DNA from: Colwellia sp. Arc7-635
GTDB taxonomy: Bacteria; Pseudomonadota; Gammaproteobacteria; Enterobacterales; Alteromonadaceae
Assembly: GCF_003971255.1 (NCBI RefSeq)
Contig: NZ_CP034660.1
Location: forward strand, 1,426,001 to 1,490,000
Direction: 5' to 3'
Length of the DNA: 64,000 nucleotides
The notes beneath the pieces are model-generated. The model had not been told where the DNA came from, searched no databases, and saw nothing but the letters and a program-made list of their open reading frames with translations. Shown one piece after another: positions 45,787 through 61,481 of this stretch. Both the position numbers and the translations under genes were made by a program. Each line of letters opens with the position of its first letter. Within the stretch, counting starts at the first letter, position 1.

Positions 45787-46578
45787 TTACTTAGGTCGAC
45801 TAAAAGGCATTTTTAGCAACGTGAGCAAATTAGCGTTCTTTTTAGTCGCCGGGTAACTTTTAAGGCCGATATCTAAGTCTTCATCACTTTTTTGCGCCTG
45901 TGATTTATAACTGCCAAACATTCTGTCCCACCAACTAACGCTAAAACCATAGTTACTATTAGTTTCGTTGACAACTTGGCTATGGTGAATACGATGCAAT
46001 ACTTGGGTAATAAGTATGGTGCGAAGGGGCAGCTCTAACCAACGTGGTAGTCGAATATTTGCATGATTGAACAGGGCAAAACCATTAAGGGCAACTTCAA
46101 AGATAATCACTGCAGTAGCGGGCACACCTAATATCAGTACAGCTAAAGCTTTCAATAAAATACTTAAGGCTATTTCAACCGGATGAAAGCGTAAGCCGGT
46201 ACTGGCATCGATATGGCTGTCAGCATGATGAACCTTGTGAAAACGCCATAGCATAGGCACAAGATGAAAAATTCGATGCTGCCAATAAATCATTAAATCT
46301 AATAACAACACACTGAGCGTAATACTGAGCCAGGTCGGTAAGTTAATGATATTAAAAAGGCCTATGCCCTGTGTCGAGGCATATAAGGCGATACCGGCAA
46401 CGCCAATAGGGATTAATAATCGGGCGACGATAGACGATAAAATTAACAGCGAAAAATTGCCTAACCAACGTACAGGTTTCGTTAATTTACTTTTTCGCGC
46501 TGGATAACAGCTTTCCAGCACGAGCATGACCAATAAAATAGTGAAGAATATACTGAGACGAAAACTGGCATCGGTCAT
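45787..46578 (-). CDS. Fatty acid hydroxylase/sterol desaturase superfamily membrane enzyme
   Basis: This 263-residue integral membrane protein carries the di-iron histidine boxes of the superfamily: HRIFH (H101, H105), HKVHH (H114, H117, H118), a lone H172, and HRIHH (H195, H198, H199). Such enzymes hydroxylate or desaturate lipids or related hydrophobic compounds with oxygen. It is the last gene of the leftward cluster and starts one base after the CDP-alcohol phosphatidyltransferase gene, so the two are tightly coupled. This suggests that both act on the same lipid. The product is unknown; bacterial relatives include carotenoid hydroxylases and alkylglycerol-type monooxygenases. Confidence 0.87.
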   Translation of the reverse strand: MTDASFRLSIFFTILLVMLVLESCYPARKSKLTKPVRWLGNFSLLILSSIVARLLIPIGVAGIALYASTQGIGLFNIINLPTWLSITLSVLLLDLMIYWQHRIFHLVPMLWRFHKVHHADSHIDASTGLRFHPVEIALSILLKALAVLILGVPATAVIIFEVALNGFALFNHANIRLPRWLELPLRTILITQVLHRIHHSQVVNETNSNYGFSVSWWDRMFGSYKSQAQKSDEDLDIGLKSYPATKKNANLLTLLKMPFSRPK

Positions 46579-47256
46579 TTATTTATCTGCTCCAGATATT
46601 TCTGTGTCGGTACTTGGACTGGCAACGTCGGCTTGGTCTAGATTGTGCGCTTTTAGCGTGTGATAGCCGCCATAAACTCGTGTAACAATAGTGATGCCAG
46701 CAAGGAAAGCGAAAGCATAAGCGAGTTCAGCAAAATACTGCGGCCATAAACAAAAGGCGACAAATATAAGGATGGTTTCGGTGCCTTCGGTTAAGCCGTT
46801 TAAATAGTAAAAACTTTTGTAAGCGAATTGCGGTTTGTCTAAATTGAATTTTTCTGCCGGAATTGCAAACGCTAAAAAGCTTGAGCCTGTGCCAATAAAT
46901 ACCGCTAATAATACGGCAGCAGCTAAAGCATTTTGTTCAGGATTCGCCAACGCAAAGCCTAATGGTATGGCAGCGTAGAATAAAAAATCTAGACAAATAT
47001 CTAAATAACCACCGGCGCTAGTGCTGTTGTTTTGATGACGAGCTAGCGCCCCGTCTAAACCATCGAGTATGCGGTTTAAAACAATAGCAGTTAAGGCGCA
47101 ATACCATAAATTTAAGGCCAACAAAGGTATAGCTAACATGCCAATGATAAAGCCAAATACCGTTAGTTGATCTGCAGTTACTTGGCGTTCATCTAATAAA
47201 CTCACGATAGGTTGTAATAATGGCTTTATAACGGGGGTGATATATTTATCTAGCAT
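46579..47256 (-). CDS. CDP-alcohol phosphatidyltransferase (YnjF-like)
   Basis: The 225-residue protein has about six helices and a complete CDP-alcohol phosphotransferase motif, D65-x2-D68-G69-x2-A72-R73-x8-G82-x3-D86-x3-D90. The family joins a CDP-activated lipid or alcohol to a second alcohol, as in phospholipid headgroup synthesis. It is not the housekeeping PgsA or PssA by sequence pattern. In E. coli the related ynjF lies beside ynjBCD, and here the gene again follows the three ABC genes, after 108 bp containing a hexanucleotide repeat. The substrates are unknown. Confidence 0.88.
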   Translation of the reverse strand: MLDKYITPVIKPLLQPIVSLLDERQVTADQLTVFGFIIGMLAIPLLALNLWYCALTAIVLNRILDGLDGALARHQNNSTSAGGYLDICLDFLFYAAIPLGFALANPEQNALAAAVLLAVFIGTGSSFLAFAIPAEKFNLDKPQFAYKSFYYLNGLTEGTETILIFVAFCLWPQYFAELAYAFAFLAGITIVTRVYGGYHTLKAHNLDQADVASPSTDTEISGADK

Positions 47257-47293
47257 AGATATTCTTCTTACTTATGTTGTGCTTCTATTGTGT

Positions 47294-47342
47294 TTAAATT
47301 TAAATCTAAATCTAGGGCTAAAACTAAAACTAAAACTAAAAC
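47294..47342. repeat. Hexanucleotide microsatellite upstream of the CDP-alcohol transferase gene
   Basis: Four copies of CTAAAA at 47318-47341 are preceded by related TCTAAA units from about 47294. The tract lies about 40 bp upstream of the transferase start, within the intercistronic gap after the ATPase gene. Copy-number change would alter promoter or leader spacing, not a reading frame. Confidence 0.85.
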
Positions 47343-47364
47343 CTGAGTTATGTTCATGCTGTCA

Positions 47365-48015
47365 TTAAGTGGCCGACAAATGAATAACCTTACCGTTAGC
47401 GGCTATAGCGTCTGACTCGTCATGTGTCACCATTATAGCGGGTAATTTGTGCTGTCTTATTTGCTCAAAAACAAGTTCTCGTGTTTCTTGGCGTAATTGG
47501 CTGTCTAATTTACTAAAGGGTTCGTCCAATAGTATCGCCTTAGGCTCGCTAAGTAATACCCGTAATAGTGCAACACGTGCTTGTTGTCCACCAGATAAAC
47601 TGTCAGGCTGGCGGTTGTCTAAACCTGCTAAGCCAACTTCAGCCAGTGCAAAACTAATTTTTAGCGCACGTGCTTTTTGATCACCCTTTGGCATCGCAAA
47701 AGCAATATTATTGGCCACCGATAAGTGCGGAAACAATAAAGCGTCTTGATACAATAAACCAATATGGCGTTGGTAACTCGCCACTTGCGTTATATCACGG
47801 CCATTGAGATGAACGTTCCCCTCAGCCTGAAAACCTTTTGGTAGCATACCGGTAAGCCAATTGAGTAATGTCGATTTTCCGCTGCCTGAAGGGCCCATGA
47901 TGGTTAATACTTCCCCACCTTTTATCGTTTCATTTAGGGATAATAACGCGGCTTTATCGCGTATTATAGTTAGGTTTTCTAACTGTAGACTGTTGGTCTG
48001 GAAAGAATTGCTCAT
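47365..48015 (-). CDS. ynjD: ABC transporter ATPase, YnjD-like
   Basis: This 216-residue nucleotide-binding subunit has Walker A GPSGSGKS (41-48), Q-loop LLYQD, signature LSGGQ (140-144), Walker B ILLDEP (161-166) and the switch His (198). It powers the adjacent two-domain permease. Its start overlaps the permease stop codon by four bases. Length and context match E. coli YnjD of the uncharacterised YnjBCD importer. Confidence 0.9.
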   Translation of the reverse strand: MSNSFQTNSLQLENLTIIRDKAALLSLNETIKGGEVLTIMGPSGSGKSTLLNWLTGMLPKGFQAEGNVHLNGRDITQVASYQRHIGLLYQDALLFPHLSVANNIAFAMPKGDQKARALKISFALAEVGLAGLDNRQPDSLSGGQQARVALLRVLLSEPKAILLDEPFSKLDSQLRQETRELVFEQIRQHKLPAIMVTHDESDAIAANGKVIHLSAT

Positions 48016-49793
48016 AGGTTAGCCTTGCTGATATAACTTGCCGTTTTATTATGGCGATTTGCCTGCGTTTTTTTTCTTTTTTGTCCTGTCGATACCAACC
48101 AAATCACAGAAAAAGCTATTGCGGGTAATAACATTTGTATTAGTGCATAAACCGCACTTGTCCGGCGACTATCACCATTGGCTAAACTGACGGCTTCTGT
48201 TGTTACAGTATTAATTCGACCACCGCCAACTAACAGGGTAGGCAAGTATTGACTGAAACTAATGGCCAGCCCTAATGCGCTAGCCATTAAAATAGGCATT
48301 AATAATTGCGGTAAACTCACCTGTAAAAATATTTTAACTGGCGAGGCACCTAAACTTGCGGCTACTTGTGCGTAGCGTGGATCAAGTCGGCGGTAACTGG
48401 TAGCCAAAGATAAAAATACGTAAGGTAAAACAAACAGCAAATGTGCTAAAGCCACATTAATGAAAGTGGTTTTGCTGTGCAAGGTTTCTTGTAGCCAAAC
48501 TAAGCCAAATAGAAAAGCAATGCTGGGGATCATTAGCGGCAGGTAAATAATTAAACTGCTAAAGCGTGAAAGTTTAATGCCGTTTTGTTTTTCATACTCT
48601 AGGCTTAGCAATGTTAAAATAACAGCTATGCTTGTGGCGACTAAACCTATAGACAGTGAGTTTATAATTGGCGTTTGTACTTGCAACAAGGCTGACTGCC
48701 AATGTAATAACACCCATTGCTCTGGTAAAGCTAAGGGAAATTGCCAGTAGCCAGCAAATGACCAAAATACCAAGCCGAGTAATGCTAAAGCAATTGAGCT
48801 GATCAGAAAAACAGTAAAAACATTGATGATTTTAGCCCATAAAGCATCACCATAGGTGCGTTGACCGTTACTTAAGCTTTTACAGCTTATCGCAAGTGTT
48901 AACCTTTCTAATAACCACCAAGTGATCAGCACTGACACTGTCACCATCAATTGTAATAAGGCACCAGCAGATGCTTTGATACGCAAACTTAAATCTACAT
49001 CATGAAACCAATTCATAATTGCTACGGCTAAGGTTGGCGGCGTATTAGGGCCAAGTATTAAAGGCATTTCTACACTGGCACTGGCGTAGGCGAGTATGGC
49101 TAATATGGGCAAACGCATTAATGGATAAATGTTCGGTAATACCGCTTTGAAAAACGCAGTCATGGGATAATAACCTAAGCTAAGCGCAAGTCGGTATTGT
49201 GCACGTAGTTTTATATTAAGATCTGGCTGAGCAATCGCACTTAAGGTCATTAGTAATAAAAAGGGTAACTCTTTTAACGTTAAGCCCATGATAATACTGA
49301 TACCGTAAGGGTCGTGGGGCAATAACCAATCAATGGGGCTTTGCCAGCCACTTAACCAAGGTGAAAATAAGCGGGCGATCATGCCAGATGGCGTGATTAA
49401 AAAAGCAATCGCGATGGCTGCTGCCGCATGAGGAATAACTAAAATAGGTCCTAACAAACGCTGAATGCGTGCTAACCAAGGGCTGTCAAAGTAATTTGCT
49501 AGCAATAAAAGTGTGATAGTAAAAGCAAGCAAACCACTGATAAGACTACTGAAAAAACTCAAGCCTATCATTTGTGTTATGCCAGGTGATTGCATTAATT
49601 GCTGAAAGCCTTGCACGCCTAATTGAGTCTTATCTAATGCTGGTAACCAACCAAATGCCGGTAAAATCACGCCAAGCAAGCCGCCTAGCACTGGCAATAC
49701 TAATAGTGCGACCAATAATTTAGGGCTGAAGCTTACGATGACATTAAAAAGCTTGTCGTGCATTTTCGTATTGCTGGTTAATGATTTATTCAT
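48012..49793 (-). CDS. ynjC: ABC transporter fused permease, YnjC-like
   Basis: The 593-residue protein has about 12 helices in two homologous halves, each with a binding-protein-dependent transport signature (YRLALSLGYYPMTAFFKAVLP and AQVAASLGASPVKIFLQVSLP). This is the ThiP/YnjC arrangement in which one chain serves as both permease subunits. It is coupled to the ATPase gene downstream (overlap) and the binding-protein gene upstream (3-bp gap). It is a core part of the YnjBCD-type importer. Confidence 0.9.
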   Translation of the reverse strand: MNKSLTSNTKMHDKLFNVIVSFSPKLLVALLVLPVLGGLLGVILPAFGWLPALDKTQLGVQGFQQLMQSPGITQMIGLSFFSSLISGLLAFTITLLLLANYFDSPWLARIQRLLGPILVIPHAAAAIAIAFLITPSGMIARLFSPWLSGWQSPIDWLLPHDPYGISIIMGLTLKELPFLLLMTLSAIAQPDLNIKLRAQYRLALSLGYYPMTAFFKAVLPNIYPLMRLPILAILAYASASVEMPLILGPNTPPTLAVAIMNWFHDVDLSLRIKASAGALLQLMVTVSVLITWWLLERLTLAISCKSLSNGQRTYGDALWAKIINVFTVFLISSIALALLGLVFWSFAGYWQFPLALPEQWVLLHWQSALLQVQTPIINSLSIGLVATSIAVILTLLSLEYEKQNGIKLSRFSSLIIYLPLMIPSIAFLFGLVWLQETLHSKTTFINVALAHLLFVLPYVFLSLATSYRRLDPRYAQVAASLGASPVKIFLQVSLPQLLMPILMASALGLAISFSQYLPTLLVGGGRINTVTTEAVSLANGDSRRTSAVYALIQMLLPAIAFSVIWLVSTGQKRKKTQANRHNKTASYISKANL

Positions 49794-49796
49794 GCG

Positions 49797-51305
49797 TTAT
49801 TGCGCCCCATAACGTTTTAGCCATTCACGGCTTATGAGTTTTGACCAACTTGGGTGTGGCTCACTTAACGCGATAATTTTGCTGTTGACAGGTAGTGTGC
49901 TCGGATGCTGCTGATCGGTACTAAACAATAACTGTTGTTGCTGACTTAATTGCGATACATCCAATACCGTGCTGTCGCCCCACATTGTCGCTTGTTGCTT
50001 TTTAGCTTGCGCCTCTACACTGAGCATAAAATTGGCTACGACTTTCGCGGCGTTATGATTGGCGGCGTTATAGGGAATCGCGACAAAATGAATATTACTT
50101 AAACTGCCATCTTCCATAACAAAGCTGCGGGTATTTTCAGGTAAGTTATAGCGATCGACTGATGCAGGGATTTGCGCAGCAGCAAAAGTAAAACCAAGGT
50201 TTATCTCACCATCACCAACCAATCGTTGTAATGCTGTGCCACTGGCAGCAAAATATTGTCCTTGATGCCATAAATTTGGATGTAATTCATCTAAAAATGA
50301 CCAGAGAGCAGGCAATAAATCATCTTGGCTTTGCGGCGTTACTGTTTGATATAAAGTTGATTTCACTTGTTCACTTTTATCTTGGTTTAATGTGATCAAT
50401 GCATACTTTAAAAAACTCAGTGATAAGAAATCTGGTGGCTTTGGGTAGGTAAAACGGCCTGGATTTTTCTTTGCCCAAGTGAGTAATTGTTTAATGTTTT
50501 TAGGCGCGTGACGAATACTGTTTTGATAAGAAACGGTTGGGGTTGCTAAGTTTTCGGCATTGCTACTCTTATCTGTTGTACTACTCTGATTACGTGCAAT
50601 GATTGGCGTATAATAAAAGGTCAATGATGCTTGTCCCCAAGGTGCTTCCATACCTTGAGTTGGCAAACCAAAATCACGGGTCATTGCCTCGTTCTCACTC
50701 GGATTTGTTAACGAGAAATTAGGCAGTTGTGCAACCCAACCTTGCGCTAATAGTTGATACTTTGCCATCGATGCAAAGTTTTCGCCGTTGATCCATACTA
50801 AATCAACTTGTCCTTGCTGATGATTGTCAGCAGATTTTTCTGCTAAAACACGACTAACGGCTTCGCTAGTATCGGTTAGTTTTACATGTTGTAATTGAAT
50901 GTTATATTCTTGCTTTACTCGTTTAGCAAGCCATTGAATATAGCCATTTATTTGTGGATCACCGCCCCAAGCATGAAAGTAAACGGCATTGTTTTTTGCT
51001 AGCTGTTCGAGCGAGTGCCACTCTTTTTGTGTCATAGAATTATTAGCATTGGTTACTTCAGCCACAGCATTTTTCGTTTTGTTTTTATCTGTTTTAGCTT
51101 CTGCTATATTTTCAGTGCTAGTACTAACATCTGCTGTAGAAACGCTCTTAAGCGAGTTGTTGGCGTAGCTTAATGATGCTGTCGACAACAAGGTAATAAA
51201 TATTAAGGCAAAGCACAGACTAAACTGTGTGGAAAGTTTTAATGTCGGCAGAAATGAGTTAGCCAAAAGTGCTTTTAAATCATGAGTTTTTTTTGTTTTT
51301 GGCAT
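49797..51305 (-). CDS. ynjB: ABC transporter substrate-binding protein, YnjB-like
   Basis: This periplasmic binding protein has about 502 residues from the chosen ATG at 51305. It has a signal peptide (FSLCFALIFITLLSTASLSYA) and a YnjB-type mature part (YFHAWGGDPQINGYIQWLA; QVDLVWINGENFASM; TQGMEAPWGQASLTFYY). The frame is open 49 codons further upstream, but that part looks non-coding and overlaps the DUF547 gene. About 60 linker residues after the signal peptide are rich in Lys, Asn, Thr and Ala. The family is distantly related to thiamine- and polyamine-binding proteins; the ligand is unknown. Confidence 0.85.
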   Translation of the reverse strand: MPKTKKTHDLKALLANSFLPTLKLSTQFSLCFALIFITLLSTASLSYANNSLKSVSTADVSTSTENIAEAKTDKNKTKNAVAEVTNANNSMTQKEWHSLEQLAKNNAVYFHAWGGDPQINGYIQWLAKRVKQEYNIQLQHVKLTDTSEAVSRVLAEKSADNHQQGQVDLVWINGENFASMAKYQLLAQGWVAQLPNFSLTNPSENEAMTRDFGLPTQGMEAPWGQASLTFYYTPIIARNQSSTTDKSSNAENLATPTVSYQNSIRHAPKNIKQLLTWAKKNPGRFTYPKPPDFLSLSFLKYALITLNQDKSEQVKSTLYQTVTPQSQDDLLPALWSFLDELHPNLWHQGQYFAASGTALQRLVGDGEINLGFTFAAAQIPASVDRYNLPENTRSFVMEDGSLSNIHFVAIPYNAANHNAAKVVANFMLSVEAQAKKQQATMWGDSTVLDVSQLSQQQQLLFSTDQQHPSTLPVNSKIIALSEPHPSWSKLISREWLKRYGAQ

Positions 51306-51438
51306 AAGCTTATCGGTAGATTGAAGGGTTAAGCCAATGACGCTTTGATATGAAAAACGCTGAAAAAGGCGAGTCGCCAAAGAAGTCGAAAAACAACTCT
51401 TTTGGCGACTCAAACATCGATTAGAAAAATACGGCGGT

Positions 51439-52311
51439 TTACCTAGCGGCATTTAACGCCCAATCATAATTCAAGAAATTAGTATCGATATCTTCTGACG
51501 TTAATAGTGCTTGTTGCGCTGGTGTTAAGTTCAATGCCTCACCGTAGAGCAATACGAAACCAGGTAAAGAGTTACTGCCACGAAAGCCTTGTGTGAAGTC
51601 ATCGCCATACCACTTAAAAATAGCGGAAAGCTCCATTGTATCTTCATTAAAACGATTCCGGCTTTTGTCGCTTAAAAAGCGTATCGTTTGCTCAGTAAGC
51701 TGTTGCTCTAGTTCGTCAGCACTATACGCTTCTTCACGTAAAGCAGGGCAGCCAATACTGGCACAGTTAACGGCAAAATGAATACGTGGGTCACCATATT
51801 TATTATCACCACGAATTAACTCATGCTCAATATTATCTAAGCTGCGGGTTTCACCAAGTAACACAATAAACTTCTTACTCCATGGCGAACTAAAAAAACT
51901 ACCCAGATCTTTTATCGATTTAATATCAGGGTAAGCCGTTAAAATAAGCTCAACTGTCCATGCATTGTAAGCGTTGATCAAAAATGACAATTGCTGAGGT
52001 GCAGGCCATTGCTCAAATGTCTGCTTATCAACCTTACCAAGCGCTGTTAAATAAGCCGTTAGCTTTGCATGATCTGTTTTCATGCCAGCATAATTCACCT
52101 GGCTTGAATGACCGTCATTAATTGGCGAAACGTGTTGAGTTAATAAAGCCTGCCATGGTTGATGCAAGGCTTCTTGCGCCGTTGTAACGGCGCTAAAAAC
52201 GGTGCTCAGCAGCAGCAACACAGCTAATGATAAAGATTTAGCCCTTGTCATTGCTAGCATTGCTGTTGACCGTGCTTTGTTTAAGTTAGCCTTCGCTATT
52301 AAACTCTTCAT
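51439..52311 (-). CDS. DUF547 secreted protein
   Basis: The 290-residue product (ATG at 52311 with GAGG upstream) has a hydrophobic signal segment (about residues 25-46, ending VTTAQEA). It then carries a DUF547 domain with LSFLINAYNAWTVELIL, FFSSPWSKKFIVLLGE, LDNIEHELIRG, DPRIHFAVNCASIGCPAL and the C-terminal NYDWALN. The domain has conserved Cys, His and Asp residues and may be an enzyme, but no reaction is established that I know of. It begins five bases after the stop codon of the VTT-flavoprotein gene, and such genes often adjoin each other in marine bacteria. Confidence 0.88.
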   Translation of the reverse strand: MKSLIAKANLNKARSTAMLAMTRAKSLSLAVLLLLSTVFSAVTTAQEALHQPWQALLTQHVSPINDGHSSQVNYAGMKTDHAKLTAYLTALGKVDKQTFEQWPAPQQLSFLINAYNAWTVELILTAYPDIKSIKDLGSFFSSPWSKKFIVLLGETRSLDNIEHELIRGDNKYGDPRIHFAVNCASIGCPALREEAYSADELEQQLTEQTIRFLSDKSRNRFNEDTMELSAIFKWYGDDFTQGFRGSNSLPGFVLLYGEALNLTPAQQALLTSEDIDTNFLNYDWALNAAR

Positions 52312-52316
52312 GGGTA

Positions 52317-54494
52317 TTAACCTCTTCTCCACGTGTGGAACTTCTCTAACCAGCTTAAAACGGTTTCTGGTGCATGATTACGCTTCCATTCACCTGCAGC
52401 GTATTTATTGCCTTCAGCCCACGTTGGGTAGCTGTGAATCGTGCCTAAAATTTTATTTAAGCCTAAACCATGCTTCATGGCTAATACGAATTCAGCAATT
52501 AAATCACCGGCATGTTCAGAGACAATAGTAACGCCGAGTATTTTATCTTTACCTTTAGGTGTGATTACTTTAATAAAACCATTGGCAGCACTATCGGTAA
52601 TTGCTCGGTCCAACTCTTCAAAGTCAAAACGGGTAATTTCATAATCGATACCTTGTTCAATGGCTTCTTGTTCGTTAATGCCTACACGTGCAACTTCTGG
52701 GTCAATAAAGGTTGCCCATGGAATAACACGGTAATCGACCTTAAACTTCTTAAAGGTGCCAAATAAAGCATTAACTGCAGCGTACCAACCTTGATGAGCG
52801 GCAACATGGGTAAATTGGTAAGGACCAACAATGTCACCTGCGGCAAAGATGTTCGGGTATAAGGTTTCTAAATACTCATTGGTTTGAATAGTACGGTTAG
52901 TTTCTATTCCTAGCTCTTCAAGACCGTAACCTTTCAAGCGAGCAGAGCGGCCAACAGCACATAGTAACTGGTCGTATTCAATGGCAATTTCTTCTTCTTG
53001 ATCTGAACCTTGTTCGTGCTTAAGGTTTTTCACAATGATGAATTTTTTACCGTCACGTTGTTCACAACGTAAAGCTTGGTGCGAAGTTAAAATATTCACG
53101 CCACTTTTTTGTAATGATTGGCTAGCAAATTCAGAGACTTCAAGGTCTTCTCTGATCATGATGCGCTCAGCCATTTCAATTTGTATTACTTGTGATCCCA
53201 AACGAGCGAAACTTTGCGCAAGTTCACTACCAATAGGACCGCCGCCTAATACCACTAGTTTTTTCGGTGCAGTATCAAGTTTGGCAAATTCTGTCCATAA
53301 AGTGTCACTAGTCACATAACCACTAGTTTCAATACCTGGTAATGGTGGCACAAATGGACGAGCACCGGTTGCAATAACAATACTGCGAGCGGTTAATGTT
53401 TGCATGGTGCCATCATTAAGCTTAATCTCTACAGTCCACGGATTAATTAATTTTCCGTAGCCTTTGATCACTTCTACACCTAAGTCTGTGTAACGTTCAA
53501 CACTGTCGTGTGGCGCAATATCGGCAATCACTTGATGTACACGTGCCATCACTTTCTTAAAAGAAAACTGTGGCGTAGCGTTCTCTAAACCATAGTGTTC
53601 GCCATGGGTAATTTGGTCGACTATTTTTGCACTTTTAATGATTGCCTTACTTGGTACACAACCATAATTTAAACAGTCTCCGCCCATTTCGCCGGCTTCA
53701 ATTAGTGTTACTTTTGCTTTTACAGCGGCAGCGATATAGCTTGTTACCAAACCACCAGCACCAGCACCAATCACCAATAAGTTACGGTCAAAGCTTTTTG
53801 GTTTTTGCCATTTTTTATAAACTTTACGTTGTTTAATTTTGTTAACAATCGCTTTACCAATAAGCGGTAATAGTCCAAGTAACACAAAAGATAAAATGAG
53901 TTTAGGTGACAATATGCCCGATAAGCTGTTTATTTCAGCCAACTGTGTACCCGCGTTAACATATACAACCGTACCAGCAAGCATACCTATTTGACTAACC
54001 CAGTAAAAAGTCCAAGCTTTTATGCCAGTAACGCCCATCAGTAAGTTAACTAAAAAGAACGGAAAAACAGGCACTAAACGTAAAGTAAATAGATAGAAAG
54101 CACCTTCTTTTTGCACGCCTTCATCAATGGCTTTTAAGCGCTCAGGGAATTTGCTTTTGATGCTATCGCGTAGTAAGTAACGAGATACCAAAAAGGCTAA
54201 TAGCGCGCCAAGGCTTGAAGCGAAAGATACCACTACAAAACCTTCCACTAAGCCAAATAAAGCGCCTGCAGCTAAAGTTAAAATAGCGGCGCCAGGTAAT
54301 GATAGTGCCGCGACTAAAACGTAAAGAGCAAAAAAGCCACCAACAACTAATAAAGGTGATTGTTCGCGCCACTGGCCAAACTGATCCATTGAGCCTTTCA
54401 ATCCCTCTAATGTCAGTAATTGGTTAAGATCATAATGAAAAAACAAAGCCACAAGCGTGATGGCAATAACTAATAATAATATTTTCTTAAACAT
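52317..54494 (-). CDS. VTT/DedA-like membrane domain fused to a pyridine nucleotide-disulfide oxidoreductase
   Basis: Residues 1-220 form a TVP38/TMEM64-type (VTT) membrane domain with about six helices (AAGALFGLVEGFVVV; FTLRLVPVFPFFLVNLLMG). Residues 235-725 form a flavoprotein. It has FAD loop GAGAGG (243-248), redox-active C274 and C279 in GGDCLNYGCVPSK, an NAD loop VVLGGGPIGSELAQSF and the dimerisation domain. The usual catalytic His of the family is Tyr (HSYPTWAE, Y689), as in mercuric reductases, yet the C terminus has no Cys pair and there is no HMA domain. It is therefore a membrane-anchored disulfide reductase of unknown substrate rather than MerA. Confidence 0.9.
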   Translation of the reverse strand: MFKKILLLVIAITLVALFFHYDLNQLLTLEGLKGSMDQFGQWREQSPLLVVGGFFALYVLVAALSLPGAAILTLAAGALFGLVEGFVVVSFASSLGALLAFLVSRYLLRDSIKSKFPERLKAIDEGVQKEGAFYLFTLRLVPVFPFFLVNLLMGVTGIKAWTFYWVSQIGMLAGTVVYVNAGTQLAEINSLSGILSPKLILSFVLLGLLPLIGKAIVNKIKQRKVYKKWQKPKSFDRNLLVIGAGAGGLVTSYIAAAVKAKVTLIEAGEMGGDCLNYGCVPSKAIIKSAKIVDQITHGEHYGLENATPQFSFKKVMARVHQVIADIAPHDSVERYTDLGVEVIKGYGKLINPWTVEIKLNDGTMQTLTARSIVIATGARPFVPPLPGIETSGYVTSDTLWTEFAKLDTAPKKLVVLGGGPIGSELAQSFARLGSQVIQIEMAERIMIREDLEVSEFASQSLQKSGVNILTSHQALRCEQRDGKKFIIVKNLKHEQGSDQEEEIAIEYDQLLCAVGRSARLKGYGLEELGIETNRTIQTNEYLETLYPNIFAAGDIVGPYQFTHVAAHQGWYAAVNALFGTFKKFKVDYRVIPWATFIDPEVARVGINEQEAIEQGIDYEITRFDFEELDRAITDSAANGFIKVITPKGKDKILGVTIVSEHAGDLIAEFVLAMKHGLGLNKILGTIHSYPTWAEGNKYAAGEWKRNHAPETVLSWLEKFHTWRRG

Positions 54495-54505
54495 GAAAAT
54501 TGTCC

Positions 54506-56851
54506 TTAGAAACTGTGTGTTAAAGTAAGTTTGGCATGAACAGGTAGTTCAGGAAAAACTAAGGTAGAGCCGAAATATCCGCCTTCAAATACCGGGCGCC
54601 AATTTTTCTGGTTAGTGACATTAGCAATATCGAAACGTAATTTAGTCTGTTCATTAATACGGTAACTCGTATTAATGCCTAGTGTGTATTGATCACGTAT
54701 ATTGACCGTTGCTAAAAAATCGAGTGGATAACTTGAAGTATATAAAGCGGCAAAACCAGCTTGCCATGATTCAGTAAGATAAATACCGCCGTTAACACTT
54801 AACGTTTGCTCCGGAACGCCTTGTACTCGTCGTTTAGAAGGAGCAAAAGCCGTGAAGTTTGGTGCGCCTACGCTAGTACCTTGAATAATATCAGGGCGAG
54901 AGTTATCAAACGCATCAGCAATTTGGCCGGAGTTTTGGCTGCTCGAAGAGTTATCGTAACGAGCATCAAGGTAGCTATACCCTATGTTAAACCAATAAGG
55001 TGCAGCGTCATAAAACACTTGCAGTTCAACACCTTTGGTTTTTATACCTGTGTTGCTGCCATCGCGATTACGTAAACTACGGCGTTGATTGAACACTGAA
55101 CCATCAATATACCAAGCACTATCATTTGGAATATATTTAATACCAACCTCATTTAGTGTGTTTTCAGTGGCAAAGTTTTGCTCACTAATTAAGTTATCAG
55201 CGCCAAGTGAAGTACCACCAGCCATACTATTTGAAGTTGCTTCGTTGTAACTTGTTGCTGCATAAACGGTTAAGTCAGTATTTAGCTTGTAATTAATGCT
55301 CGCTTGGCCAGAATGCAATATCTCATTAATGCTATCTCGTGCCGCTATTTGTCCGGTAGGAGCAATAGGGTCGCGGGCTTCAACATCATAAAAATCAATA
55401 CGGTAACCAAAATTTGTCCGTAGGCGGTCGCTCCATTCGCTATCTTGTTGAATGGCAAAACCGGTTTGCCAGCTAGTTGAGTCAGTGGTATCTGATAACG
55501 AATAATCGCCGGCGTTGTCATTATTAATATCATACTGACCACCCGGTGATACAAATAAGCCAGGACGAAGTTCTACTAGTCTAGATTGCTGTTCAGCAGT
55601 CAGTGGAATGCGACGGTTTGCAAGTGAACCGGTTAAATCAATAGGATCATCAGCTTCAGTGGTGAATTGGCTATAACCGCGTACTTTATTGTAGCGCACG
55701 TCAAAAGCTAAAATAGTTTGTTGTTCGCTATTCCAATCATAACTTAGTTCAAGGCGGTTTTGCGCGGTATCAGCACCGTCTATAATTTCCACAAAACTAT
55801 TTTGCGCAATTTCATCACGGGTTAAATGTTGATAATAGGTGGTATTTTTTAAACGTATTTGGTCAGTTATTTCACGGGTATATATACTGTGCAGTAAGAA
55901 CGTCTTCGCTTCGTTTTCATTATCAGGATCGGTTAGTACCGTACTGCGAGCAATTTTTACTTGTCCTGTTGGTGATACTACTGCACCAGCACCGGGTACG
56001 GTGCTACCGTTAGGCTGCACACCTTGACCTGTTATATATAAGCCGCTATCAATTAATGCTTGTGTCGGTCTATTAATACCGGCATTGTCGGTAAATTCAA
56101 CTTGGTATAATTCAAAGTTGATATCCCATGTGCTTTGGCTGTCAGGCAATAAACGAAAGGCCGCATAAAAGCTATCACTTTTAAAACTTGAATAATCATA
56201 AAAGCTGCCATTATCAACATGTTCAGCGCTAATTCTAAAGCCACTTTCACCTTCAACAATCGGAGCACCAATATCAAGTTGTGCACTGTATTGATCCCAA
56301 CGACCAGCAGTAAGTTTTACTTTCGCTAAGCTTTTGTCAGTTGATGCGCGTTTAGATTGTAAATTTACAAAGCCACCATTGCGTTGGCTACTACCAAACA
56401 ATACCGGTGGTGCACCTTTGATTACGTCAAGTTGATCTACTGAGTTAAATGATAGTGGTACACCAAAACCGTTATTACCGGCTTGACGGCGCATACCGTC
56501 TTGAAAAAGTTCGCCTAATTGACCACGCAAAGTAGGTAAGCTTGGCGCGCCAAAACCGCTTGCTGCATAACTACTTGGCGTAACGGCTAAAATGTCTTGT
56601 AAGTCAGTTATGTTTAACTGCTCCATCATTTCGCTAGTGATCGGTGTCATTGAACGTGCGATATCGGCTAAGCCTAAATCATCGCCAAATGGCCCATTGA
56701 TCGCAGTGTTTTTAGGAGAAAAACCATGATTGATAATACGTTGACCTGATACTTTAATAACTTCAACATCAGATTCTGTGCTTTCTTGAGCACTTACGAC
56801 TTGAGATTGAAAAATAAAGTGAATGCTAAGTGCTATTAAAGTGTACTTCAT
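54506..56851 (-). CDS. TonB-dependent outer-membrane receptor, siderophore-receptor type
   Basis: The 781-residue protein has a signal peptide (cleavage near VVSA-QE, residue 21) and a TonB box-like EVIKVSG (about residues 30-36). A plug domain (DLQDILAVTPSSYAASGFGAP; VIKGAPPVLFGSSQRNGGFVNLQSKR) leads into a 22-stranded barrel that ends in the C-terminal Phe (LTLTHSF). By layout it resembles FhuA-type siderophore receptors, but many relatives carry other ligands. It begins the leftward cluster, 12 bp before the VTT-flavoprotein gene. I see no Fur box in the 240 bp upstream, so iron control is not supported. Confidence 0.9.
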   Translation of the reverse strand: MKYTLIALSIHFIFQSQVVSAQESTESDVEVIKVSGQRIINHGFSPKNTAINGPFGDDLGLADIARSMTPITSEMMEQLNITDLQDILAVTPSSYAASGFGAPSLPTLRGQLGELFQDGMRRQAGNNGFGVPLSFNSVDQLDVIKGAPPVLFGSSQRNGGFVNLQSKRASTDKSLAKVKLTAGRWDQYSAQLDIGAPIVEGESGFRISAEHVDNGSFYDYSSFKSDSFYAAFRLLPDSQSTWDINFELYQVEFTDNAGINRPTQALIDSGLYITGQGVQPNGSTVPGAGAVVSPTGQVKIARSTVLTDPDNENEAKTFLLHSIYTREITDQIRLKNTTYYQHLTRDEIAQNSFVEIIDGADTAQNRLELSYDWNSEQQTILAFDVRYNKVRGYSQFTTEADDPIDLTGSLANRRIPLTAEQQSRLVELRPGLFVSPGGQYDINNDNAGDYSLSDTTDSTSWQTGFAIQQDSEWSDRLRTNFGYRIDFYDVEARDPIAPTGQIAARDSINEILHSGQASINYKLNTDLTVYAATSYNEATSNSMAGGTSLGADNLISEQNFATENTLNEVGIKYIPNDSAWYIDGSVFNQRRSLRNRDGSNTGIKTKGVELQVFYDAAPYWFNIGYSYLDARYDNSSSSQNSGQIADAFDNSRPDIIQGTSVGAPNFTAFAPSKRRVQGVPEQTLSVNGGIYLTESWQAGFAALYTSSYPLDFLATVNIRDQYTLGINTSYRINEQTKLRFDIANVTNQKNWRPVFEGGYFGSTLVFPELPVHAKLTLTHSF

Positions 56852-57092
56852 CTACGGATACCTACAATTTTGTGATCTATCATGTTTTTTGTATTTACTA
56901 ACGTTATTTTAATGTGATGCCAACCTAGACCGAGGTTAAAAATAATAAATTTCAGTTTTTTAATTTACTTTGCATTTTTAATGCAGATCGCGGGTAACAT
57001 GGCATTTTTCAAATCATTATAGGTGTATTCGAGGAAACTAGTAGGAGAATATAATGTTTTCATATAGCTAGAGGTAATAACAAGCTTATACT

Positions 57093-57732: not shown

Positions 57733-57873
57733 CATACTTCCTGTTATGAAGAGCAACAGATTACTGTCGAGTGCCTGTAATTTTGTTGTGGTTATTAATG
57801 TGCTGAAGTGAATTATAAATAAAGTGAGAACGAGGCTCATAAAGCAGCCTCATTCTCATCAAAAAGTTAGTTT

Positions 57874-60941: not shown

Positions 60942-61481
60942 TTGAATTCGTTTAACGAACGCCAGCTCGTTGCATTAGTGCAAGAGAGCTTACCTTATGA
61001 TACGCGCTTCTTTCAGCAGCTGATCACCCCTTACTTGCCTCAATTGAAAGGTTATTGTGTAAAGGTGCTCAGTAATCAGTCAGATGCTGAAGATGCAGTG
61101 CAAGAAACTATTATTAAAGCCCTAACAAATTTGAAAGGCTTTAAATGGTTAGTGTCGTTTAAAGTGTGGCTGTTCAAAATTGCTCATCATGAATGTATCA
61201 ACAAAATTAGAGACCGTCGTTGGGATATAATGCAATACGACGATGATTATCTCGATAGCCTTGAAGCTAAATTACCAGATGAAAACGATATTGCAGTGTT
61301 AATTTTTACTATGCTTGATAGCTTATCTTTTGTTGATCGTAACATTATGTTGTTGCGCTATCGAACAGGGCTCGATTTTCAGGATATTGCTGATATTAAT
61401 GAAATGAAACTTTCTGCGGTTAAAATGAGGCATAAAAGGGTACTTGAATTTCTCACTTGCCAAATGGACGCAGAACAATAG
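60942..61481 (+). CDS. ECF-type RNA polymerase sigma factor
   Basis: This 179-residue protein starts at a TTG. It has sigma region 2 (LKGYCVKVLSNQSDAEDAVQETIIKAL, family order; FKVWLFKIAHHECINKIRDRR) and region 4 (LSFVDRNIMLLRYRTGLDFQDIADI; LSAVKMRHKRVLEFL). Region 3 is missing, as expected for the extracytoplasmic-function group. No anti-sigma gene follows; the three genes small protein-channel-sigma form one unit, ended by a terminator at 61522. Its control mechanism is open, and the adjacent membrane proteins might take the place of an anti-sigma factor. Confidence 0.87.
   Translation: MNSFNERQLVALVQESLPYDTRFFQQLITPYLPQLKGYCVKVLSNQSDAEDAVQETIIKALTNLKGFKWLVSFKVWLFKIAHHECINKIRDRRWDIMQYDDDYLDSLEAKLPDENDIAVLIFTMLDSLSFVDRNIMLLRYRTGLDFQDIADINEMKLSAVKMRHKRVLEFLTCQMDAEQ

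What the first reader, a model, noticed from the sequence alone, without database searches (positions are those of the whole stretch)
45787..56851. Expanded YnjBCD-type cluster combining a TonB receptor, membrane flavoprotein, DUF547 protein and lipid enzymes
Eight leftward genes with mostly overlapping or tiny gaps cover uptake across the outer membrane (TonB receptor), a membrane-anchored disulfide reductase with a VTT domain, a DUF547 secreted protein, a complete YnjB-YnjC-YnjD ABC importer, a CDP-alcohol phosphatidyltransferase and a di-iron hydroxylase. Sequence shows the order and coupling. From established knowledge, E. coli has ydjXYZ-ynjABCDEF with VTT proteins, YnjBCD and the transferase YnjF close together, and no assigned function. 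Recurrence of these components in a rearranged and enlarged form argues for one pathway. My inference is import of an unknown compound coupled to membrane redox chemistry and to synthesis of a modified lipid.
Basis: partly seen in the sequence, partly recalled or inferred. Interest (0 to 1): 0.78.

Follow-up and report, generated by a model that had tools for sequence, protein, structure and literature searches.

The report
Stress-regulated uptake, redox and lipid operon
Eight neighbouring genes in a marine Colwellia form a conserved operon that appears to share its on-switch with genes for copper-binding peptides and repair of oxidant damage, which points an unassigned E. coli-type transporter towards copper and oxidant stress at the cell surface.

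Summary
The eight genes are real, lie at the stated coordinates and keep their order across several Alteromonadales genera, so the operon is not a one-genome accident. New here is its promoter. A bipartite motif, TGAAA-N18-GGTCT, precedes the first gene in 29 of 31 related loci (at most 1 mismatch; 22 exact), against 0 of 420 exact and 8 of 420 with at most 1 mismatch at other genes of the same loci. The same motif (spacer 17 or 18) is exact upstream of 11 of 12 EGKCG-type copper-peptide genes found beside MNIO enzymes, and in single genomes upstream of MsrA, CutA/DsbD, glutathione reductase, catalase-peroxidase and BufA2. This parallels the published Haemophilus RpoE2 and Neisseria SigE regulons. 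Best reading: an ECF-sigma-controlled envelope oxidant/copper stress operon in which a TonB receptor and YnjBCD import a small ligand, a membrane-tethered MerA/RclA-like flavoprotein carries out a reduction, and two lipid enzymes modify the membrane. The shared promoter is supported by sequence only; ligand, chemistry and cognate sigma factor are inferred or unknown. An arsenosugar reading was tested and set aside.

The parts
54506..56851 (-). TonB-dependent receptor, first gene of the operon
   Evidence: ORF; Plug 37.8 bits and barrel 53.7 bits; weak sequence hit to the pyochelin receptor 1xkw, 40.6 bits
52317..54494 (-). VTT domain fused to a MerA/RclA-like FAD oxidoreductase; redox Cys pair CLNYGC present; Tyr at the place of the GR-type C-terminal His
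51439..52332 (-).
   Evidence: 92.3 bits, cut-off 27; model pLDDT 90 with no PDB fold match at E<=0.001
49797..51452 (-). YnjB substrate-binding protein, with a longer N-terminus than most relatives aligned
   Evidence: NF008633 456.8 bits (cut-off 203); alignment; model pLDDT 92.8; fold matches
48012..49793 (-). YnjC ABC permease
   Evidence: BPD_transp_1 45.4 bits; homologues score with both window and E. coli YnjC
47365..48015 (-). YnjD ABC ATPase
   Evidence: ABC_tran 114.6 bits
46579..47256 (-). YnjF-type CDP-alcohol phosphatidyltransferase with four conserved Asp (D65, D68, D86, D90)
   Evidence: invariant in the alignment of 11
45787..46578 (-). Fatty-acid-hydroxylase superfamily membrane enzyme with three His boxes
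   Evidence: 102.8 bits, cut-off 31; OlsE model 95.3 bits, below its cut-off 475
56925..56954 (-). ECF-type promoter motif TGAAA-N18-GGTCT, 103 bp upstream of the receptor start codon
   Evidence: conservation and control
57825..57858 (-). Terminator-like hairpin separating the upstream ompA-like gene
   Evidence: consensus scan

Best explanation
The eight genes are one operon with an ECF-sigma-type promoter, and they belong to an envelope oxidant/copper stress regulon together with copper-binding RiPP genes (HvfA/EGKCG, BufA2, HvfX), MsrA, CutA/DsbD and antioxidant enzymes. Shown: conservation of the operon, the shared promoter motif and the family assignments. Inferred: under such stress the TonB receptor and YnjBCD import a small scarce or chelated ligand. 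Also inferred: the VTT-anchored MerA/RclA-like flavoprotein reduces it, or a metal or oxidant, at the inner membrane; the DUF547 protein acts in the periplasm; and YnjF plus the hydroxylase change the head group or chains of a membrane lipid to harden the envelope. The cognate sigma factor is not identified.
For: Operon conservation. Motif with fixed 18-base spacing at the first gene: 19 of 23 loci with at most 1 mismatch (after leaving out 5 near-duplicates and one contig end), against 0-3 of 23 for each other spacing from 12 to 25; 29 of 31 loci against 8 of 420 other genes. Independent test: of 12 complete EGKCG genes next to an MNIO gene in loci found through the MNIO family, 11 have an exact site, 3 of them with spacer 17. 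Four stand-alone HvfA genes also have it, but these were found through the motif. Of 55 exact sites in 7 genomes, 28 lie at most 170 nt upstream of an ORF (24, 4); about 4.25 expected by a rough estimate. NCBIfam names genes downstream HvfA, BufA2, HvfX, MsrA, Gor and DsbD above their cut-offs, and CutA and a truncated KatG below theirs. The H. influenzae RpoE2 regulon holds msrAB and the doxX cluster and answers hypochlorite (PMC7907618, passages). RclA, a homologous flavoprotein, is a Cu(II) reductase (PMC7527725, start of abstract).
Against: No expression data. Total motif counts per genome do not exceed the reversed-pattern control (55 against 51), so single sites outside conserved positions are unreliable. 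The loci are related, and the set of 31 holds near-duplicates, so they are not independent. The Psychrobacter (0 of 11), Halomonas (0 of 22) and E. coli versions lack the motif, so the link is clade-specific. One EGKCG-MNIO cluster, in Colwellia G003, lacks it and instead has its own TIGR02943 sigma gene nearby. That sigma family is absent from 32 of 33 genomes tested at E<=1e-30. Eight Colwellia genomes with the operon have no MNIO enzyme, two of them with HvfA. YnjB has no ligand assignment.
Confidence: 0.55

Rival explanations
1. Nutrient and lipid reading: the receptor and YnjBCD import an organic phosphate or polyol that YnjF attaches to CDP-diacylglycerol, giving a special phospholipid; stress control is secondary.
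For: YnjB model is closest to STM0429, AfuA (hexose-6-phosphate) and polyamine binders; YnjF is nearest to inositol-phosphate-type phosphatidyltransferases, below their cut-offs; YnjBCD-YnjF also occurs without the window's redox genes adjacent in L038 and L056, and in L036 with only a distant flavoprotein relative several kb away.
Against: The 50 fold matches shown have TM 0.46-0.65 to the query and 12-18% identity, and cover many ligand classes; it does not explain the promoter shared with copper RiPPs and MsrA.
Confidence: 0.2
2. Metalloid reading: a branch of the arsenosugar (ArsS/ArsM) pathway, as NCBI names of neighbours in Halomonas suggest.
For: TIGR04282 and TIGR04283 'arsenosugar biosynthesis glycosyltransferases' beside YnjBCD in Halomonas (named in L090 and L091; others by tblastn); the VTT-flavoprotein lies within about 3 kb of ArsS in L221, L224, L226, L233 and L238.
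Against: No ArsS above its cut-off in the window genome, and ArsS in only 4 of 62 YnjB genomes, all Psychrobacter; 29 of 40 VTT-flavoprotein genomes (one a partial match) and 27 of 40 without it have ArsS, so no genome-level link.
Confidence: 0.08
3. The stress regulon membership is right but the transporter is incidental: the operon's role is membrane lipid remodelling (VTT flippase-like domain, YnjF, hydroxylase), with the receptor and YnjBCD serving a separate nutrient.
For: Parts are lost separately: the hydroxylase is missing in 8 Psychrobacter loci (a further one, L074, is cut by its contig end), and no Psychrobacter locus shows the receptor or DUF547.
Against: VTT-flavoprotein and YnjBCD stay adjacent in loci that have lost DUF547 or the hydroxylase, such as L061 and most Psychrobacter loci (L076 is an exception).
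Confidence: 0.15

Closest known systems
E. coli ydjXYZ-ynjABCD-ynjE / ynjF (L005)
   Same: YnjB, YnjC, YnjD and YnjF homologues together, and VTT (DedA-type) proteins in the same cluster
   Different: VTT proteins are separate genes without a flavoprotein; no TonB receptor, DUF547 or hydroxylase in the stretch shown; listed in the FNR regulon (PMC3688515, passages); no TGAAA-N18-GGTCT site (2 mismatches)
H. influenzae RpoE2 and N. meningitidis SigE regulons
   Same: MsrA(B) and a doxX cluster with UPF0276 and DUF2063 genes under one ECF sigma factor (PMC7907618, passages)
   Different: The passages seen list no YnjBCD or VTT-flavoprotein operon; the cognate sigma was not found here
Bufferins/captophorins (HvfA, BufA2; MNIO-modified copper RiPPs)
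   Same: Share the promoter motif with the operon; copper binding reported in PMC13097082 (passages)
   Different: RiPP genes were found elsewhere in the genome, not inside this operon; the words TonB and YnjB do not occur in the main text of PMC12452194
RclA / MerA flavoproteins
   Same: Same oxidoreductase family: MerA model 371.4 bits, RclA 199.7 bits
   Different: Below the cut-offs of both models (454.45 and 740); carries an N-terminal VTT membrane domain
Methanobactin operon (TonB importer, binding protein, ECF sigma, MNIO; recalled)
   Same: Receptor plus periplasmic binding protein plus ECF-type promoter, with MNIO-type peptides in the same regulon
   Different: YnjB belongs to another binding-protein family (recalled), and the peptide genes are unlinked

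Membership tests
YnjB substrate-binding proteins (NF008633) | Score above the curated cut-off of 203 bits | tested here: met
   456.8 bits
YnjBCD importer | Binding protein, permease and ATPase adjacent | tested here: met
   same order
CDP-alcohol phosphatidyltransferase | Pfam gathering score and catalytic Asp motif | tested here: met
   43.8 bits (cut-off 22); D65, D68, D86 and D90 invariant in 11
OlsE ornithine-lipid hydroxylase | NF052566 cut-off of 475 bits | tested here: not met
   95.3 bits; the His boxes are present
RpoE2/SigE-type stress regulon | Promoter shared with msrA and hvf/EGKCG genes | tested here: met
   exception L363
RpoE2/SigE-type stress regulon | Cognate ECF sigma with zinc anti-sigma | tested here: inconclusive
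   TIGR02943 absent in 32 of 33 genomes at E<=1e-30; other ECF families not searched
RpoE2/SigE-type stress regulon | Induction by hypochlorite, peroxide or copper | not testable with these tools
   needs expression data
Arsenosugar pathway | ArsS radical SAM enzyme in the genome | tested here: not met
   best own-genome match 38.5 bits against cut-off 300
MerA / RclA | Score above the curated cut-off | tested here: not met
   371.4 of 454.45 and 199.7 of 740
Glutathione-type disulfide reductase | C-terminal His of the HPT motif (role recalled) | tested here: not met
   YPT in four and YPA in one of five VTT-flavoproteins, HPT in Gor

The most novel reading that the evidence does not exclude
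The operon is a methanobactin-like retrieval system for copper-loaded thiooxazole peptides: the stress regulon exports EGKCG-type peptides, and the TonB receptor with YnjBCD takes back copper-loaded peptides or their fragments. The VTT-flavoprotein then reduces Cu(II) or the ligand, giving YnjBCD a first substrate class.
Probability: 0.12. Interest if true: 0.85.

Novelty: new variant of a known kind. Interest (0 to 1): 0.6.

Why it matters

Tried and rejected
Arsenosugar branch: followed because of TIGR04282/TIGR04283 neighbours in Halomonas and ArsS near the VTT-flavoprotein in other genomes. Set aside for Colwellia because ArsS is missing. An idea that YnjB genomes avoid ArsS was also dropped: in a sample of 80 genomes with and without YnjB, mostly from the same families, none had ArsS.

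Iron, thiamine and other known control: no Fur match above the shuffle maximum, none of 13 recalled regulator consensuses enriched (highest z 1.1), and no Rfam match at gathering scores in 6 loci. In the window stretch only three weak matches appeared, far below their gathering scores.

Cognate sigma: TIGR02943 rejected for the window genome. The ECF gene in the window (60942-61481, SigX-type) is judged unlikely, because no site with 18-base spacing and at most 1 mismatch was among the best rows shown upstream of the neighbouring ompA-like gene in 9 loci; three of them have a 1-mismatch site with spacing 17 or 19. That step is inference. The rseABC-linked rpoE beside the operon in L051 and L057 has a GAACTT-type element upstream, read by eye.

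Structure: the DUF547 model found no PDB match at E<=0.001. YnjB matched many binders without singling out a ligand. In the gene-order counts, 14 of 103 loci had no YnjB ORF called by my script; re-read the named ones with tblastn. In one search the 80 genomes were a part of the class sample: 40 with the fusion and 40 without it, both picked by size and completeness from the listing.
Full report
Observation. The eight ORFs are at the stated places on the minus strand with the stated domains. YnjB scores 456.8 bits in its subfamily model (cut-off 203). Spacings run from an 11-bp gap to a 16-bp overlap, except a 108-bp gap between ynjD and the CDP-alcohol transferase gene. A consensus scan shows no terminator-like site in that gap and a strong one upstream, behind the ompA-like gene. 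Catalytic motifs are intact: four Asp in the transferase, three His boxes in the hydroxylase and a Cys pair in the flavoprotein.

Conservation. In 60 relatives, 22 have YnjB above the cut-off; in a phylum-wide sample, 51 of 398. Of 23 fetched loci (one, L058, without YnjB), 11 keep the full eight-gene order; L043 lacks the hydroxylase and L042 the receptor; L054 and L055 lack DUF547 and have the hydroxylase on the other strand, and L055 also lacks the receptor. Of these 80, 15 have all eight genes in order (Colwellia, Cognaticolwellia, Pseudocolwellia, Pseudoalteromonas, Shewanella, Alteromonas, Salinimonas, an Alteromonadaceae MAG), 2 Psychromonas lack only the receptor, and most Psychrobacter loci keep VTT-flavoprotein-YnjBCD-YnjF with or without the hydroxylase. 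Three of the 15 are the same genomes as. In Halomonas the neighbours change: an APH-type kinase, TIGR04283 and TIGR04282 transferases (named in L091 and L090) and, in 11 loci, the VTT-flavoprotein.

Promoter. Upstream of the first gene stands TGAAA, 18 bases, GGTCT. With at most one mismatch it occurs in 19 of 23 loci (29 minus 5 near-duplicates and L081), and in 0-3 of 23 for every other spacing from 12 to 25. With the first gene of 31 Alteromonadales-type loci (near-duplicates included), it is found in 29 (22 exact). The misses are L054 (2 mismatches) and L081, where the contig ends and an exact site lies just inside the called ORF. Other ORFs of at least 150 aa in the same loci, operon genes included, give 0 of 420 exact and 8 of 420 with at most one mismatch. 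The loci are related, so this is not 31 independent trials. Psychrobacter (0 of 11), Halomonas (0 of 22) and E. coli ydjX (2 mismatches) lack it.

Regulon by motif. In seven genomes, 55 exact sites were found against 51 for the reversed control pattern, so most sites could be chance; position and conservation decide. At most 170 nt upstream of an ORF lie 24 of the 51 sites read (two more sit before ORFs under 75 aa and were dropped; two of the 24, L282 and L288, overlap the called start of an opposite ORF) and all 4 of the rest; about 4.25 are expected by a rough estimate. Downstream genes: the operon; HvfA in 4 of 4 Colwellia genomes; MsrA in two Colwellia and one Pseudoalteromonas genome (one of the three by eye only); CutA in two Pseudoalteromonas genomes (by eye) and in the window genome. 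The same site is conserved in all four Colwellia genomes: before CutA in G000, before DsbD in G005, before an ORF of similar size 201 nt away in G008, and with no ORF called in G003. Gor, KatG, HvfX, BufA2 and a few unnamed genes follow in single or paired genomes. HvfA scores 127.8 bits (cut-off 19.5), BufA2 126.1 (60), HvfX 226 and 210.4 (80), MsrA 144.2 and 143.9 (108.1), Gor 736.7 (480) and DsbD 553.8 (330). CutA scores 117.5 (cut-off 145) and a truncated KatG 757.5 (981), both below.

Regulon by an independent route. MNIO enzymes (PF05114) occur in 26 of 51 genomes searched, 39 matches in all. Among the loci held around them (not all 39), 12 distinct complete EGKCG genes were found; 11 have an exact site upstream (8 with spacer 18, 3 with spacer 17), four of these in genomes without YnjB (G029, G032, G033, G035). 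The twelfth, L363 in Colwellia G003, has none and carries its own TIGR02943 sigma gene nearby. L333 is cut by its contig end. Other MNIO clusters: BufA2 in Pseudoalteromonas exact (L327); four Colwellia HvfX-type clusters one mismatch (L324, L330, L331, L332); L338 one mismatch; L325, L326 and L337 none. Eight Colwellia genomes with the operon have no MNIO, two of them (G005, G008) with HvfA.

Published parallel. In H. influenzae, RpoE2 controls msrAB and a doxX cluster homologous to the Neisseria SigE set, and is induced by hypochlorite (PMC7907618, passages). EGKCG precursors, DoxX and sigma genes in MNIO clusters are described in PMC12452194 (passages). Copper binding and the name captophorins come from PMC13097082 (passages). 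RclA as a Cu(II) reductase induced by hypochlorous acid comes from PMC7527725 (start of abstract). Caulobacter sigmaF controls a DUF2282-DUF692-DUF2063-DoxX operon under metal stress with a different promoter (PMC3511200, passages).

The flavoprotein. Fusion of this oxidoreductase to the domain is already noted as the commonest COG0398 fusion (PMC10127716, passages). In 185 class-wide genomes, 45 carry a nearly full-length fusion above 890 bits, one of them with two stops. Neighbours in 40 fetched loci include DUF547 (3) and, in a few, ArsS, ArsM-like and TIGR0428x genes. The HPT motif of Gor is YPT in four and YPA in one of the five VTT proteins aligned with it. It is below the MerA and RclA cut-offs. 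Its substrate cannot be named.

Structures. The YnjB model (pLDDT 92.8) is nearest to STM0429, AfuA (hexose-6-phosphate), polyamine and ferric binders, at 12-18% identity in the 50 rows shown. The DUF547 model (pLDDT 90) has no PDB match at E<=0.001.

Judgement. Operon as a conserved unit: near certain. Shared ECF-type promoter with copper RiPP and repair genes in Alteromonadales: well supported by sequence, not by expression. Ligand, redox substrate, lipid product and sigma factor: unknown.

Noticed in passing
window:57874-61481: ompA/OprF-like gene, an MscS-like membrane-channel gene (by eye, no family call) and a SigX-type ECF sigma gene (NF007222 212.3 bits, cut-off 194), resembling the Pseudomonas cmpX-sigX-oprF locus (recalled).
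   Followed up: partly
L042:3653-15762 (G045): The operon sits between ribonucleotide reductase large and small subunit genes; two Psychromonas loci (L063, L127) have similarly sized flanking genes that I did not identify.
   Followed up: no
L041:16283-16696 and similar places: A small DoxX/MauE-like membrane gene (DoxX 25.9 bits, cut-off 23.6) lies next to the operon in many genera; L066 has a second exact motif on the opposite strand between it and the receptor gene.
   Followed up: partly
L221, L224, L226, L233, L238: The VTT-flavoprotein lies within about 3 kb of ArsS (named in L221, 452.7 bits, cut-off 300; others by cluster and place); unfused FAD relatives lie close to ArsS in several further genomes.
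   Followed up: partly
L089-L112: Halomonas clusters: APH-type kinase, YnjBCD, TIGR04283, TIGR04282, then either VTT-flavoprotein plus a small FAD oxidoreductase or an ECF sigma gene (TIGR02943, named in L102; others by similarity); no shared function assigned.
   Followed up: partly
L363:3411-6826 (G003): EGKCG-MNIO cluster without the motif, with a TIGR02943 sigma gene and a small Cys-containing protein beside it that may be its anti-sigma (by eye).
   Followed up: partly
L040, L053: YnjB relatives with no YnjC or YnjD matched within the 20 kb fetched: orphan binding proteins.
   Followed up: no
window:18395 (-): A second motif-like site (TGAAA-N18-GGTCA) in the window; downstream gene not examined.
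   Followed up: no
window:43301-45438: Sensor kinase (MctS model 429.7 bits, below cut-off 700) and response regulator convergent with the operon's end.
   Followed up: no
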